IMG/VR virus record: IMGVR_UViG_3300020156_000023
Location: 1-64,000 of that record
DNA from: a virus
Length of the DNA stretch: 64,000 nt
Direction: 5' to 3' (one strand)
In this document: positions 2,178 to 6,800 of the stretch, piece after piece
Layout: every line of letters begins with the position of its first letter
How positions within the stretch are numbered: the first letter of the stretch is position 1
Program-made: the position numbers and the translations under genes
The notes under the pieces: model-generated
Database searches by the model: none
Seen by the model: the letters and a program-made list of their open reading frames with translations, nothing else
What the model was told of the DNA's origin: nothing

Positions 2178-2501
2178 ATGGCTAATACAACAGAAGACAC
2201 AGCACAAGCTAACACTACAGCAGCTACTTATTTACAACTTATCTCTAAAGATGAGAAACAAGTAAAAGTTGAAGGTCTAACCATTAAAGCTCAAGAGGCT
2301 TCATTAGAAGTTTCAAGAGAGATTATGAATCTTAAGTCATCTATAGCTAAGAAAACTACTGAACTTGAGGCATCTAAGAGACAAATCCCTTATGATGTTA
2401 GGAGTGAGTACAAACTTACTAATGAGCTTCAAGAACTTAACAATAGGTTAGAGTTTGCTCAAGCTATCAAGTCTGAAAGATTTTCAGATGCTAATATATA
2501 A
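2178..2501 (+). CDS. Small coiled-coil protein, unknown function
   Basis: A 107-residue protein with a Thr/Ala-rich disordered N-terminus (about 20 residues) and then nearly continuous charged helix (about 25-100) with heptad-like hydrophobic spacing. It has no cysteine and no membrane segment. It lies 12 bases after uracil-DNA glycosylase and directly before the ubiquitin-like gene, so it could be a partner or target of that pathway. This is inferred from position only. I do not recognise the family. Confidence 0.7.
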   Translation: MANTTEDTAQANTTAATYLQLISKDEKQVKVEGLTIKAQEASLEVSREIMNLKSSIAKKTTELEASKRQIPYDVRSEYKLTNELQELNNRLEFAQAIKSERFSDANI

Positions 2502-2556: not shown

Positions 2557-2976
2557 ATGAGAAAAGTTAAAATTTATTCAACAGTAGGTACTTCAGGTAC
2601 AATTGATACTAATGTAAGGACTTTAGGAGAGCTTAAACCTTTACTAAGACAACAAGGTATCAATTATGATGGTATGAAGATGTTAGTTGGAGAAACAAGG
2701 AATGAGTTAGGAGTTGATGAGGCAGTTCTGCCTGAAGGAGATTTCAAACTTTATCTAATGCCAGAGAAAACTAAATCTGGAATAGATACTGATGGGATAT
2801 TAGATGCATTGGATGAAGCTTCTGAAGCTATTGAGACTGCAAGAGCAGCAGTTATCAGAAGTATAAATGATAGACCAGCAACTAAGTCTATGTCCTATGA
2901 AGACCAGGAAGCTATGGAAGACCTTAGAAGGCTTGCAGGTGGTGGTTCTTCTTCAAGAAGTAATTCTTGGGATTAA
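2557..2976 (+). CDS. Ubiquitin-like beta-grasp protein with C-terminal GGG and tail
   Basis: A 139-residue protein. Residues 1-70 show the beta-grasp order: strand (VKIYST), loop, strand (TIDTNV), helix (LGELKPLLRQQG), then two strands ending FKLYLMPE. The middle (about 75-126) is a charged helical region. The end reads LRRLAGGG (Gly128-130), followed by nine residues, SSSRSNSWD. Ubiquitin ends in a similar Leu/Arg-rich stretch plus Gly-Gly, and its precursors carry a tail that a peptidase removes. The next three genes encode E2-like, JAMM peptidase and E1-like proteins, so this is the natural conjugated modifier. It resembles ThiS/PRTRC-C-type beta-grasp proteins in size of fold but lacks clear PRTRC-C signature residues. 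Fold assignment is by eye. Confidence 0.6.
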   Translation: MRKVKIYSTVGTSGTIDTNVRTLGELKPLLRQQGINYDGMKMLVGETRNELGVDEAVLPEGDFKLYLMPEKTKSGIDTDGILDALDEASEAIETARAAVIRSINDRPATKSMSYEDQEAMEDLRRLAGGGSSSRSNSWD

Positions 2977-2984
2977 TATTAATT

Positions 2985-3014
2985 AACGGGGCTAATAAAG
3001 CCCCGTTTTTCTTT
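2985..3014 (+). terminator. Rho-independent terminator after the ubiquitin-like gene
   Basis: The nine-base arms AACGGGGCT (2985-2993) and AGCCCCGTT (2999-3007) enclose a five-base loop and run into a T-rich tract (TTTTTCTTTT). The hairpin is GC-rich in an AT-rich genome. It lies between the ubiquitin-like gene and the E2-like gene, so it should lower downstream expression relative to the modifier. Confidence 0.85.
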
Positions 3015-3028
3015 TAATTTACTAAAAT

Positions 3029-4168
3029 ATGGATACAAGAGAATTACAATTATCTGGTAAAGCAAGGGATTATGCGTGGATGTTAGAGCAGTTTAACCAA
3101 GGTAAGTTAACAATAGGAGGAGTTCCTCTTAATAAAGTACATTTTGATAAATTAAGAGTATTTATTAAAGTTGCTAATGAAATTTATGAGAATGCTTGGG
3201 ATTTAGAAGTACTGCTTTATGGTAATAATATAGAAATCAAAGGTTTAGTTATTCATTTTCCTGAGATTACCATAAGAAATAGAAGTAATAGGAGACATAC
3301 TATAAAAGATTTGTTTGTAAAGTTACCTTTTTCTATTAATGGAGATACACTAAAAGTAAACTCACCTCAAGGTGGTAGAACCACTTGGACTCATGCAGAA
3401 TGGAGTTCAGATTATTCACATAGTCACTTATCTGGTATTAACAAAAGTTCAGGAGCACTCCCGCTTTATTCAGGCTTCTGTACAGGTTCAGGACATATTA
3501 ATGATTATATAGCTGATATTTGTAGTGGAGAATTTTCAGAAGAGCTTGTTACAAGCTTATTAGTACAAATAATGGGTCTTGCCTCTTATGAATCAATAGA
3601 GGGAACTCCTTATAGAACTATGTCAAGTATTTATGATAGAAGTGTTTCAAATGGTTCATTTTATATGGCACGAGATGCATATAAAACACTATATGATTTG
3701 CTTATGAACCATTATAAACATTATACAAAAGAATTACCTCCTATAGAATTTGGTGTAGAAACAGGTAAGTATTTTGTCAAAGATAATGATAAGTTTGATG
3801 AGTTTTTAAACTCTGTACCACTTACCCATGAGCAGAAACAAAGATATTTAGCTTTTATAGATAATACAGGAACTGCGTGGAGATATGGAGCCTCTCCTAC
3901 TGGAACTACAGTAGATACAAGCTTATATACTCCATATATTTTTAGAAGTCAGGAATATAGTGCTAACATAATATATCAAAGAAGAGAAGAAACAGAGGTT
4001 GAGTATAAAGTACACCCTCAAATTAGAAATCAAATAAAAAAGGAGATTGAATATGAAATCAACAGGAAAACAATTAGAAAGAGTACAATTGACAGATACA
4101 CAAATAAAGCTAGTGATGCCAGAAAGAGTGCTAAACCAAGTAAAGTACCTGTGCAGGCAAATAGCTAA
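3029..4168 (+). CDS. E2-like (ubiquitin-conjugating-fold) protein, candidate
   Basis: A 379-residue protein. After an N-terminal helical part (about 1-60) there is a strand-rich core, VIHFPEITIRN (about 74-84) and IKDLFVKLPF (about 92-101). It is followed by YSHSHLSG (His131, His133), then SGFCTGSG with Cys151, then helices. A beta meander, a His-containing flap and a single Cys before a helix is the layout of E2 and prokaryotic E2-like proteins, including the PRTRC-B type. The C-terminus (about 330-379) is basic and low complexity, and overlaps the JAMM peptidase gene by 116 bases. Position between a ubiquitin-like gene and JAMM/E1 genes strongly favours an E2 role. The assignment is inference from pattern and context. 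Confidence 0.5.
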   Translation: MDTRELQLSGKARDYAWMLEQFNQGKLTIGGVPLNKVHFDKLRVFIKVANEIYENAWDLEVLLYGNNIEIKGLVIHFPEITIRNRSNRRHTIKDLFVKLPFSINGDTLKVNSPQGGRTTWTHAEWSSDYSHSHLSGINKSSGALPLYSGFCTGSGHINDYIADICSGEFSEELVTSLLVQIMGLASYESIEGTPYRTMSSIYDRSVSNGSFYMARDAYKTLYDLLMNHYKHYTKELPPIEFGVETGKYFVKDNDKFDEFLNSVPLTHEQKQRYLAFIDNTGTAWRYGASPTGTTVDTSLYTPYIFRSQEYSANIIYQRREETEVEYKVHPQIRNQIKKEIEYEINRKTIRKSTIDRYTNKASDARKSAKPSKVPVQANS

Positions 4169-5384
4169 GGTAGAGTGGTCAGGAGTACTTTTCTATTCTG
4201 TAGAAGGTTCTATTAAAGAACCAGGTAAGATGGTACTTACCATAGAAGATATATTACCAATGCATAAAGGTACAAGTGCTTATACTGAATATACTTTTGA
4301 TGAGAGGGTAGTAGACTATATGATGGATAATGAAGTAATGGAAAAAGGTTGGAAAATGGGTCATGTGCATTCCCATAACACTATGGGTGTATTCTTCTCA
4401 GGTACTGATTGGAGTGAATTAGAGGATAATGCTCCTAACCATAATTTCTATCTGTCATTGATAGTAAATAACTTTATGGACTTCTGTGCTAAAGTGTGCT
4501 TTATAGTAGATTGTGATGAGAGTAAGGAATTTAGTTTCTCAGGTAAAGATGAGAATGGCCAAAGATATGTTTATACAACTGAATCCTATGGGGTTCCAGA
4601 TAAAAAGTTAGTTGTTTATGATTGTGCTATAGAATCCCCTAAGAATGAAATAGTAGTTGATGATAGTTTTGCTTCTAAAGTGGACCACATCATAGCAGAA
4701 GCTGAAAGAGTAACTGCCAGAACTACATTAACAACTGGAACTACAAGCCTTAAGAACTTTTTAGATAAAGAGAAAGGAGAGAATAGTAGTGTGGGAAAGT
4801 CTGGTACGCACCAGAGGAATGGAACGAATACTGGTGGTAAGAAAGGTAAAGGATGGTCAAGATGGCAAGACCAAATGGATGCATGGTCTGATAAATCTTG
4901 GCATCAAAAGATTGATGATGAACCTAAAGAAGAGATTAAAGCCTCTAAGAATTTTAAAAATGGTGGTCCTAATAATGAAGATGTTCTTTTGATGCATGTA
5001 AGTGATAGAGCTTATATTGATGCTATTGAAGCATTTTCAATGTATGTAGTAAATGGTGGTAATTCTACTGAAGAGTATGGAGACATAGATGATATTACAG
5101 AAATGTATATGCAACATAAAGTATCTGGAAAAGCTTTAGCATCCCATATATTAGAAAACTATTCTGATATGTATGATGCATTCTTTGAAAAGCTTGAAGA
5201 TAGGGATGATGCTAAACTATTTATAGATATTACAAAAGACCTTATAGATAATTTAGAATCTGAATGTGAAGTAACATTGTTGCCACAACAAGTAGAATTA
5301 ATAAGACCTGTTATATTTGCTTTAGAAAATATGATAAGAACTTTTGAGGCAGCAGCTGAAGGAAAAAATAAAATGATAATATAA
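4053..5384 (+). CDS. JAB/JAMM-domain isopeptidase (deubiquitinase-like)
   Basis: A 443-residue protein. The JAMM zinc-peptidase signature is complete: Glu41 in EWSGVLFY, then HSH (His106, His108), seven residues, then SGTD (Ser116, Asp119). Such enzymes cut after a ubiquitin-like Gly-Gly end or remove the modifier from targets. The C-terminal ~230 residues hold a linker rich in Gly, Lys and Trp, then a helical acidic domain with no name I can give. I start at ATG 4053, not TTG 4047, because AAGGAG at 4040-4045 is well spaced from it and the JAMM domain begins after residue 15. The gene overlaps the E2-like gene and is followed two bases later by the E1-like gene. Confidence 0.88.
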   Translation: MKSTGKQLERVQLTDTQIKLVMPERVLNQVKYLCRQIAKVEWSGVLFYSVEGSIKEPGKMVLTIEDILPMHKGTSAYTEYTFDERVVDYMMDNEVMEKGWKMGHVHSHNTMGVFFSGTDWSELEDNAPNHNFYLSLIVNNFMDFCAKVCFIVDCDESKEFSFSGKDENGQRYVYTTESYGVPDKKLVVYDCAIESPKNEIVVDDSFASKVDHIIAEAERVTARTTLTTGTTSLKNFLDKEKGENSSVGKSGTHQRNGTNTGGKKGKGWSRWQDQMDAWSDKSWHQKIDDEPKEEIKASKNFKNGGPNNEDVLLMHVSDRAYIDAIEAFSMYVVNGGNSTEEYGDIDDITEMYMQHKVSGKALASHILENYSDMYDAFFEKLEDRDDAKLFIDITKDLIDNLESECEVTLLPQQVELIRPVIFALENMIRTFEAAAEGKNKMII

Positions 5385-5385
5385 T

Positions 5386-6090
5386 ATGACAGAATTACAT
5401 TCAAGTAGATTTAAAGATGCTCCATGGTTTCCTAAAGAGGAAACTTATGTAGTAATTGGAGGTTCAGGAGGAATAGGTTCGTGGTTAACTATATTACTTG
5501 CCAGAGCAGGATTCCTACCTATTATATATGATTTTGATACTATTGAAGAACATAATATAGGTGGGCAACTTTTTGGTAAGAAACATATAACTATGGCTAA
5601 AGTAGATGCTCTTAAAGAAATTGTAAAAGAGTTTACTGATACAGAAGTTACTGCAAATAATGAGAGATATACTTCAGAAAGTATGTCACATCACTATGTA
5701 TTCTCTGCTTTTGATAATATGAAAGCAAGGAGAGATATGTTTGATGCATGGAAAGCTTATGTAAAAGAATATCAGGAAGAGAACTTAGATAAAGAAAATT
5801 ATCAGGTTCCTGTATTCATAGATGGTAGGCTTACTATGGAACAATTAACTATCTTCTGTGTTACACCAGATAAGGTAGAGGAATATGAGAAACATTTATT
5901 TGATGATTCTGAGGTTGAGGATGCACCATGCACTCTTAAACAGACATCACATAGTGCAGCTATGATAGCTTCACATATGGTAGGTTTCTTTACAAACCAT
6001 ATGGCTAATAATGCTGTAGGGGAAGATGATAGAGCATTACCATTTAGGTGGGAATACTTTATACCAATTAATTATATAAATGAAGAATAA
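5386..6090 (+). CDS. E1/ThiF-family adenylating enzyme
   Basis: A 234-residue protein with a Rossmann-type ThiF/MoeB/E1 fold. The ATP-binding loop is GGSGGIGSW (about 25-33). Then come DFDTIEEHNIGGQLF (about 49-63), matching the Asp...Asn...Arg/Gln region of E1 enzymes, SAFDNMKARR (about 107-116), and IDGRLTMEQL. A cysteine in APCTLKQT (Cys182) sits where E1 enzymes carry the catalytic Cys. The enzyme would adenylate the C-terminus of the ubiquitin-like protein and pass it to a thiol. At 234 residues it is a minimal, single-domain version. The start is two bases after the JAMM gene, and the stop overlaps the next start (TAATG), so the cluster is co-translated. Confidence 0.85.
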   Translation: MTELHSSRFKDAPWFPKEETYVVIGGSGGIGSWLTILLARAGFLPIIYDFDTIEEHNIGGQLFGKKHITMAKVDALKEIVKEFTDTEVTANNERYTSESMSHHYVFSAFDNMKARRDMFDAWKAYVKEYQEENLDKENYQVPVFIDGRLTMEQLTIFCVTPDKVEEYEKHLFDDSEVEDAPCTLKQTSHSAAMIASHMVGFFTNHMANNAVGEDDRALPFRWEYFIPINYINEE

Positions 6091-6800
6091 TGATAATGAA
6101 TAGAATTAGTGATATAATTCATTTTAGAATGCCTTTTAATAGGGTAGGTAGTCATCCTGAAACAGGGAGAAGAACAATGTTACCTGGTTTCCCTGAAGAA
6201 GATTTTAGAACTGGATTAATAGGAACTTCCGACTGTAACACATTTATTCCAATCATTGCTTTAATGAATCATACTTTATTAGAGTTTGAAGATACAAAGG
6301 TAATAGAGTATTCTATGCCTATCTCAAGTCATGTATATAGTGCTACCAGACAATATAATACATTATTAGATGGTTTAGTGAGGGCTTCAAGACCAGTAAA
6401 GTTTGATTACAGGCTACAAGGTGTTTCACATACTTTATATGCTCATAGAGGTGTATTGTATAGTCAAGATGGCAAGATATTGATGTGTCTTGCTGTTGAT
6501 AGAGATTATGGTTTCACAATACCAATAAGTGAGTCAGAGCCTAATATAGAAATGGATACTACTAAATTTCTGTTGTTCATGACATCAGATTTTGATGCAC
6601 CTGAATATAAAAATGTTAAAAAAAAGCTTGAATCTTTATATGTAGAGAAATGTAAAGCTCATAACATTGATATAGTATATACTTCAAGGGTAGAACAATG
6701 GTTATTTAAAAATAACTTTAAGGTACCTGCATTCAAAAGTGTGATAGAAATGAATAAACATCTTAAAGAGGAAGTTCCTAAAAATCTTTTAATGGTTTAA
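6090..6800 (+). CDS. Unknown partner of the ubiquitin-like cluster
   Basis: A 236-residue protein of mixed alpha/beta character, with no transmembrane segment and no catalytic motif I recognise. It is translationally coupled to the E1-like gene (TAATG overlap at 6088-6092; ATG at 6096 is an alternative start). A region near DYRLQGVSHTLYAHRG is strand-rich, followed by MCLAVDRDYGF. It could be an adaptor, substrate receptor or second PRTRC-like component; position is the only support. Whether it travels with the other four genes in related phages would be informative. Confidence 0.7.
   Translation: MIMNRISDIIHFRMPFNRVGSHPETGRRTMLPGFPEEDFRTGLIGTSDCNTFIPIIALMNHTLLEFEDTKVIEYSMPISSHVYSATRQYNTLLDGLVRASRPVKFDYRLQGVSHTLYAHRGVLYSQDGKILMCLAVDRDYGFTIPISESEPNIEMDTTKFLLFMTSDFDAPEYKNVKKKLESLYVEKCKAHNIDIVYTSRVEQWLFKNNFKVPAFKSVIEMNKHLKEEVPKNLLMV

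What the first reader, a model, noticed from the sequence alone, without database searches (positions are those of the whole stretch)
2557..6090. A four-gene ubiquitin-like conjugation pathway in a phage, ordered like Bil operons
Seen: a beta-grasp protein ending in Gly-Gly-Gly plus tail, an E2-like protein with a candidate catalytic Cys, a complete JAMM peptidase (Glu41, His106, His108, Asp119), and an E1/ThiF protein with intact ATP loop, in that order and largely coupled. Known: Bil (bacterial ISG15-like) defence operons and related systems combine the same four parts, in the order modifier, E2, peptidase, E1, and modify phage tail proteins. Inferred: a phage-owned version could modify host or rival phage proteins, protect its own virion, or block a host Bil system by competing for the modifier. 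I cannot say whether it has been described.
Basis: partly seen in the sequence, partly recalled or inferred. Interest (0 to 1): 0.92.

Follow-up and report, generated by a model that had tools for sequence, protein, structure and literature searches.

The report
Phage-encoded ubiquitin-like tagging pathway
Many crAss-like phages, including lab-grown gut phages such as crAss001 and DAC15, carry a complete four-gene kit that looks able to attach a ubiquitin-like tag to proteins, which would let a bacterial virus mark proteins much as eukaryotic cells do; what it marks is unknown.

Summary
Four adjacent genes encode a ubiquitin-like modifier (Ubl), an E2-like protein, a JAMM peptidase and an E1. 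All 82 IMG/VR loci that carry the E1 and are not truncated upstream have the same order. Key residues are invariant in 76-79 divergent homologues: Ubl G75, E2 H133/C151, JAMM E-HxH-S-D, E1 ATP loop and C182. The Ubl model matches ubiquitin/SUMO/ISG15; the E2 fold rests on weak but specific hits. Corrections: the functional C-terminus is G75 (KTKSG), not GGG127-129; six phages' Ubls end one residue after that Gly. It is not Bil: one Ubl domain, single-domain E1, no CEHH motif. Gene order and the JAMM and E1 profiles point towards PRTRC, but PRTRC's F gene is missing. New: a terminator-like hairpin lies between Ubl and E2 in 46 of 75 loci (controls 0-1 of 75), so modifier is probably made in excess; relatives without JAMM have Ubls ending at Gly, so JAMM probably matures the Ubl. 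The cassette is nearly confined to crAss-like phages and patchy among them; in two relatives the same slot holds rIIAB or an amidoligase cassette. Substrates are unknown; host proteins are the likeliest guess.

The parts
2557..2976 (+). Ubiquitin-like modifier precursor (139 aa): beta-grasp domain residues 1-70, conserved KTKSG linker ending at G75 (codon 2779-2781), then a 64-residue helical tail predicted to be removed
   Evidence: AF2 pLDDT 89 with dip at residues 71-80; PDB fold matches ubiquitin/SUMO/ISG15; G75 invariant 76/76 and six homologues end one residue later
2985..3015 (+). Intrinsic-terminator-like hairpin plus T-tract between the Ubl and E2 genes
   Evidence: -15.7 kcal/mol, z -3.6; terminator scan; comparable hairpins at this junction in 46/75 distinct loci vs 0, 0 and 1 of 75 in control positions
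3029..4168 (+). E2-like protein (379 aa); H133 (codon 3425-3427) and candidate catalytic C151 (codon 3479-3481)
   Evidence: H133, C151, G153 78/78 and S189, G192 invariant; AF2 pLDDT 87.5; top PDB matches TSG101 UEV, UEV, Ctf19 but E 0.09-0.48
4053..5384 (+). JAMM metallopeptidase (443 aa) overlapping the E2 gene by 116 nt; E41, H106, H108, S116, D119
   Evidence: Prok-JAB in 13 of 16 homologues, PADLOC JAB 9e-4; motif residues 79/79; profile match to PRTRC protein A, E 2.6e-5
5386..6090 (+). E1-like adenylating enzyme (234 aa, single ThiF domain); ATP loop GGSGGIGS 25-32; candidate catalytic C182 (codon 5929-5931)
   Evidence: Pfam ThiF 1.4e-16; invariant residues incl. C182 77/77; solved relatives MccB, UBA5 and other E1s
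6090..6800 (+). Conserved fifth gene (236 aa, PHROG 15446), function unknown, directly after E1; possible accessory part
   Evidence: Family found next to E1 in 63 ORF matches but without near-invariant catalytic-type residues; not detected in crAss001

Best explanation
A complete, reversible, virus-owned ubiquitin-like conjugation pathway. The Ubl is made as a precursor; JAMM cuts it after Gly75 and may later remove the tag. E1 adenylates Gly75 with ATP and holds it as a thioester on Cys182. It passes to Cys151 of the E2 and then to an amine (probably lysine) of target proteins; no E3 is seen. A terminator after the Ubl gene lets many transcripts stop there, so modifier exceeds enzymes. Because the cassette lies among replication genes, next to primase and uracil-DNA glycosylase, it most likely acts during takeover, on host proteins, possibly defence proteins. 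Shown: genes, order, invariant residues, beta-grasp and ThiF/JAMM identity, terminator-like hairpin; E2 fold likely. Inferred: catalysis and its steps, JAMM maturation, excess of modifier, timing, targets (host targets about 0.5).
For: Strict co-occurrence and order in 82/82 loci; catalytic residues invariant down to about 20-40% identity; Ubl fold; G75 and minimal KSG-X forms; relatives without an adjacent JAMM gene (11 Bacteroidota PRTRC operons, jumbo-phage cluster) have Ubls ending at Gly, whereas 76/76 here have at least one residue to remove; terminator between Ubl and E2; slot used by rIIAB in cr116_1 and by an amidoligase cassette in phi14:2.
Against: E2 fold match is statistically weak and no profile match to known E2s was found. 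No E3, no known substrate, no biochemical data. The alternative-cassette argument rests on one genome each. The Ubl C-terminus is a single Gly (SG), not GG. JAMM/tail correlation is not corrected for relatedness, and one of three PRTRC operons with JAMM has a tailless Ubl.
Confidence: 0.78

Rival explanations
1. The pathway conjugates the Ubl to the phage's own proteins (virion or replisome), to protect or assemble them, rather than to host proteins. Same chemistry, different target.
For: The genes lie among replication genes; lambda-type phages use a Ubl and a JAB protein in tail assembly (PMC1779556).
Against: Many crAss-like phages with a related capsid lack the cassette; it is not in the structural module; the crAss001 structural atlas text does not mention gp75-gp79 or ubiquitin.
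Confidence: 0.25
2. A sulfur-carrier pathway: E1 activates the Ubl's C-terminal Gly for thiocarboxylation (as ThiS/MoaD/CysO/QbsE types do, the last two processed by JAMM) to build a sulfur-containing product, not a protein conjugate.
For: E1 matches ThiF, MoeB and MccB models; JAMM next to ThiS/MoaD-like proteins occurs in sulfur gene clusters (PMC1779556).
Against: A strictly co-occurring E2-like protein with invariant His and Cys, which sulfur-carrier clusters lack; E1 keeps C182 in a CTxxx motif; no rhodanese or other sulfur gene beside it.
Confidence: 0.1
3. A decoy or antagonist: the phage Ubl and JAMM compete with or undo a host ubiquitin-like system (Bil, PRTRC, CBASS) and do not run their own conjugation.
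For: PRTRC operons exist in Bacteroidota (9 of 297 genomes); phage and PRTRC JAMM profiles are related.
Against: A decoy would not need strictly conserved E1 and E2 active sites; the phage Ubl shows no detectable profile similarity to PRTRC Ubls.
Confidence: 0.1

Closest known systems
PRTRC system (I read the type 6d operons of Iyer, Burroughs and Aravind 2006, PMC1779556, as the same thing)
   Same: Single-domain Ubl with functional terminal Gly, separate E2-like protein with C-x-G active-site motif, JAMM in some, single-domain E1; order Ubl-(F)-E2-JAMM-E1 in proteobacterial members; E1 and JAMM profiles related (98.8%; E 2.6e-5).
   Different: No alpha-helical F protein between Ubl and E2 and no PRTRC E beside it; JAMM domain is N-terminal with a long C-terminal part, in PRTRC A it is C-terminal; Ubl and E2 not matched at profile level; carried by phages, not plasmids or ICEs.
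Bil (BilABCD, bacterial ISG15-like; PMC11354881, Millman 2022, Chambers 2024)
   Same: Four separate genes for Ubl, E2, JAMM, E1 in that order (order from the finding and my knowledge); a precursor Ubl matured by JAMM at a Gly.
   Different: BilA has two Ubl domains, BilD two adenylation domains plus a Cys domain, BilB a CEHH motif; here one, one, and none. Bil is a bacterial anti-phage defence, this is phage-borne.
Type II CBASS Cap2-Cap3
   Same: E1, E2 and JAB activities; PADLOC E1-E2 models match the E1 part.
   Different: E1 and E2 are fused in Cap2 and the cGAS-like enzyme itself is conjugated (PMC10097602); here the E2 is separate and a dedicated Ubl exists.
Jumbo-phage Ubl-E2-E1 cluster (Xanthomonas PhiXhv-12 and Erwinia Ep032; noticed here)
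   Same: E1 matches the crAss-like E1 model (5e-33) and is sister to it in a tree; E2-like HPH...CLGS motif; Ubl next to them.
   Different: No JAMM detected in the genome; Ubl ends in SGG; E2-like protein is 892 aa with a Cys-rich end.

Membership tests
Ubiquitin-like conjugation pathway (general) | Beta-grasp modifier with functional C-terminal Gly | tested here: met
   Fold; G75 invariant 76/76
Ubiquitin-like conjugation pathway (general) | E1 with ATP loop and catalytic Cys | tested here: met
   ThiF 1.4e-16; invariant loop and C182; activity not tested
Ubiquitin-like conjugation pathway (general) | E2 fold with catalytic Cys | tested here: inconclusive
   C151 and H133 78/78; UEV/RWD top fold hits at E 0.09-0.48
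Ubiquitin-like conjugation pathway (general) | Covalent conjugates in cells | not testable with these tools
   Needs biochemistry
Bil (BilABCD) | Gene order Ubl-E2-JAMM-E1 as four separate genes | tested here: met
Bil (BilABCD) | Modifier with two Ubl domains | tested here: not met
   One beta-grasp domain then helices; several homologues are only about 77-95 aa
Bil (BilABCD) | E1 with inactive plus active adenylation domains and a Cys domain | tested here: not met
   234 aa, single ThiF match 19-196; BilD architecture from PMC11354881
Bil (BilABCD) | E2 CEHH motif (Cys followed by Glu, His, His) | tested here: not met
   No conserved Glu/His/His in the 19 residues after C151
Bil (BilABCD) | Anti-phage defence in the host bacterium | not testable with these tools
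   Genes are in phages; a defence against rival phages was not tested
PRTRC | NCBIfam PRTRC models over their cut-offs | tested here: not met
   Only PRTRC_ThiF matches, 34.5 bits vs 144.75; A, B, C, E, F no match
PRTRC | F protein between Ubl and E2, E protein before Ubl | tested here: not met
   Ubl and E2 genes adjacent; no NCBIfam match to E or F in the window's ten genes scanned
PRTRC | Homologous Ubl and E2 | tested here: inconclusive
   No significant profile match, but best E2 alignment falls on the Cys motif; PRTRC alignment shallow
Type II CBASS | Fused E1-E2 (Cap2) next to a cGAS-like enzyme | tested here: not met
   Separate genes; no such neighbour in families found

The most novel reading that the evidence does not exclude
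A distinct, virus-specific lineage of complete E1-E2-Ubl-JAMM conjugation, widespread in Steigviridae-type and aquatic crAss-like phages, that tags host (defence) proteins during infection and sits in a slot for interchangeable host-takeover cassettes (Ubl conjugation, amidoligase, rIIAB).
Probability: 0.42. Interest if true: 0.94.

Novelty: new variant of a known kind. Interest (0 to 1): 0.85.

Why it matters
Ubiquitin-like conjugation in bacteria is known as a weapon against phages (Bil, CBASS). A complete, conserved pathway owned by phages, including cultivable ones (crAss001, DAC15, Fpv1), would show the chemistry used in the other direction and makes it directly testable in very abundant gut viruses, whose Ubl and E2 are now annotated 'hypothetical' and whose E1 is annotated 'thiamine biosynthesis'.

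Tried and rejected
GGG127-129 as the conjugation site: rejected, not conserved. Membership in Bil: rejected on three features. Profile-profile match of Ubl and E2 to PRTRC C/B: nothing significant. A consistent Pfam/NCBIfam identity of Ubl and E2 homologues: none. Plasmid relatives of the E1: none. Cellular relatives: two MAG contigs with clear relatives (one with the whole cluster, one short fragment), which look like phage contigs, plus remote ThiF hits. Jumbo-phage E1 in IMG/VR: none found. Structural RNA: no Rfam match. rIIAB as a general alternative to the cassette: seen in one genome of 38. BFVD fold search of the E2: significant hits only to uncharacterised viral proteins. Sequence search of solved structures with the Ubl, E2 and JAMM profiles: nothing meaningful. 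Literature: no held paper describes the cluster, but most subscription papers and preprints are not held, so priority is unsure.
Full report
What is there. Four genes at 2557-6090 on the + strand encode, in order, a 139-aa Ubl, a 379-aa E2-like protein, a 443-aa JAMM peptidase (ATG 4053) and a 234-aa E1. They lie downstream of a primase and a uracil-DNA glycosylase and upstream of a PHROG 15446-type protein, a RusA-like resolvase family protein and an exonuclease VIII-type nuclease. The window is part of a 100,410-base virus record. Its capsid protein is crAss-like, nearest among named phages to Flavobacterium psychrophilum phages.

Family and fold evidence. The E1 matches Pfam ThiF (1.4e-16). 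The JAMM match is weak in the window protein, but 13 of 16 homologues match Prok-JAB (best 4e-6). Ubl and E2 match no named family, only PHROGs of unknown function. AlphaFold models are confident: Ubl pLDDT 89, E2 87.5. The Ubl's PDB neighbours are ubiquitin, SUMO and ISG15. The E2's top three PDB matches among 350,542 chains are two TSG101 UEV domains (an inactive E2 fold) and Ctf19 (RWD-like), but with E 0.086-0.48, so the E2 fold is likely, not proven.

Conservation and co-occurrence. Scans of IMG/VR with the E1 alone gave 86 loci. In all 82 that are not truncated upstream, Ubl, E2, JAMM and E1 follow each other in this order. At least 253 IMG/VR stretches encode a relative of the E1. Across 76-79 distinct sequences these are invariant or nearly so: Ubl G75; E2 H133, C151, G153, S189, G192; JAMM E, HxH, S, D; E1 G26, D51, N57, Q61, K72, D110, R115, C182. 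C182 sits in PCTLKQTS, which resembles the catalytic-cysteine CTxxx motif of eukaryotic E1s (comparison from my own knowledge).

Where the modifier ends. G75 in KTKSG follows the last beta strand in a low-confidence, probably flexible linker and is invariant (76/76). In six phages the Ubl stops exactly one residue after it; in the others 5-252 residues follow. Eleven Bacteroidota PRTRC operons and the jumbo-phage cluster, which show no JAMM, have Ubls ending at Gly. Of three proteobacterial PRTRC operons with JAMM, two have Ubl tails (5 and about 70 residues) and one has none. So JAMM most likely matures the precursor; by analogy with other JAMM enzymes it may also remove the tag. The species are related, so this is a correlation, not independent trials.

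Expression. A terminator-like hairpin lies between Ubl and E2 (2985-3015; -15.7 kcal/mol, z -3.6). Such hairpins, with differing sequences, occur there in 46 of 75 distinct loci, against 0 of 75 inside E2, 0 of 75 after E1 and 1 of 75 before the Ubl. This predicts excess modifier over enzymes. E2 and JAMM genes overlap in most loci, commonly by about 60-130 nt.

Distribution. Among named phages the E1 is found in 78 records, about 74 of them crAss-like, while the capsid query finds 144 crAss-like records. Isolates with it include crAss001 (gp79-gp76), DAC15, DAC17 and the Fpv phages. A profile search of ten other crAss-like genomes (four Intestiviridae, four Suoliviridae, two Steigviridae) found none. 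In the two Steigviridae without it the primase-UDG interval holds other cassettes: rIIA-rIIB in cr116_1, and GGCT, ATP-grasp, glutamine amidotransferase and amidoligase genes in phi14:2. The second is a possible alternative amide-ligating cassette. These are single cases; rIIAB was found in no cassette carrier tested. Jumbo phages of Xanthomonas and Erwinia carry a JAMM-less relative whose E1 is sister to the crAss E1s with PRTRC ThiF outside (92/88 support, long branches). In 84,980 bacterial and archaeal genomes only two MAG contigs hold clear relatives.

Relation to known systems. The order is that of Bil, but Bil has a two-domain modifier, a two-adenylation-domain E1 and a CEHH E2 (PMC11354881); none fits. 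PRTRC fits better in parts and order, with related E1 and JAMM profiles (98.8% probability; E 2.6e-5), but its E and F proteins are missing here and the NCBIfam cut-offs are not reached. I did not fetch Bil sequences, so I cannot say by profile which of the two is nearer. I place it as a distinct viral variant of bacterial ubiquitin-like conjugation.

Mechanism and limits. Most likely JAMM exposes G75; E1 adenylates it and forms a thioester at C182; E2 C151 receives it and transfers it to target amines; JAMM may reverse it. Location among replication genes and the alternative cassettes suggest host takeover or counter-defence. Targets, timing and any E3 are unknown, and nothing here is biochemical. 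The next step that would settle most is co-expression in E. coli with active-site mutants, then mass spectrometry of infected cells.

Noticed in passing
L121 2706-6582 (Xanthomonas phage PhiXhv-12, PV764601): Jumbo phages of Xanthomonas and Erwinia carry a related Ubl (ending KASGG) - 892-aa E2-like protein (HPHM...CLGS, Cys-rich end) - E1 cluster with no JAMM found in the genome.
   Followed up: partly
L026 10082-12374 (Flavobacterium phage Fpv1) versus L153 5082-6353 (FpV4): In Fpv1 the JAMM gene is split by a roughly 1-kb insert at the HxH active-site codons carrying a reversed LAGLIDADG homing-endonuclease gene; FpV4 has the uninterrupted gene. No Rfam intron family matched.
   Followed up: partly
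L143 20607-24763 (cr116_1): rIIA-rIIB genes, with rIIA itself interrupted by an annotated intron endonuclease, occupy the primase-UDG interval where relatives carry the Ubl cassette.
   Followed up: partly
L145 22025-27669 (Cellulophaga phage phi14:2): GGCT, ATP-grasp, glutamine amidotransferase and amidoligase genes occupy the same interval: a possible second type of amide-ligating cassette.
   Followed up: partly
L110-L120: Bacteroidota PRTRC operons (E-C-F-B-ThiF) show no JAMM gene beside them, and their Ubls end exactly at Gly.
   Followed up: partly
window 2178-2501: 107-aa protein of unknown function just upstream of the Ubl, found in only three other loci (L001, L002, L022).
   Followed up: no
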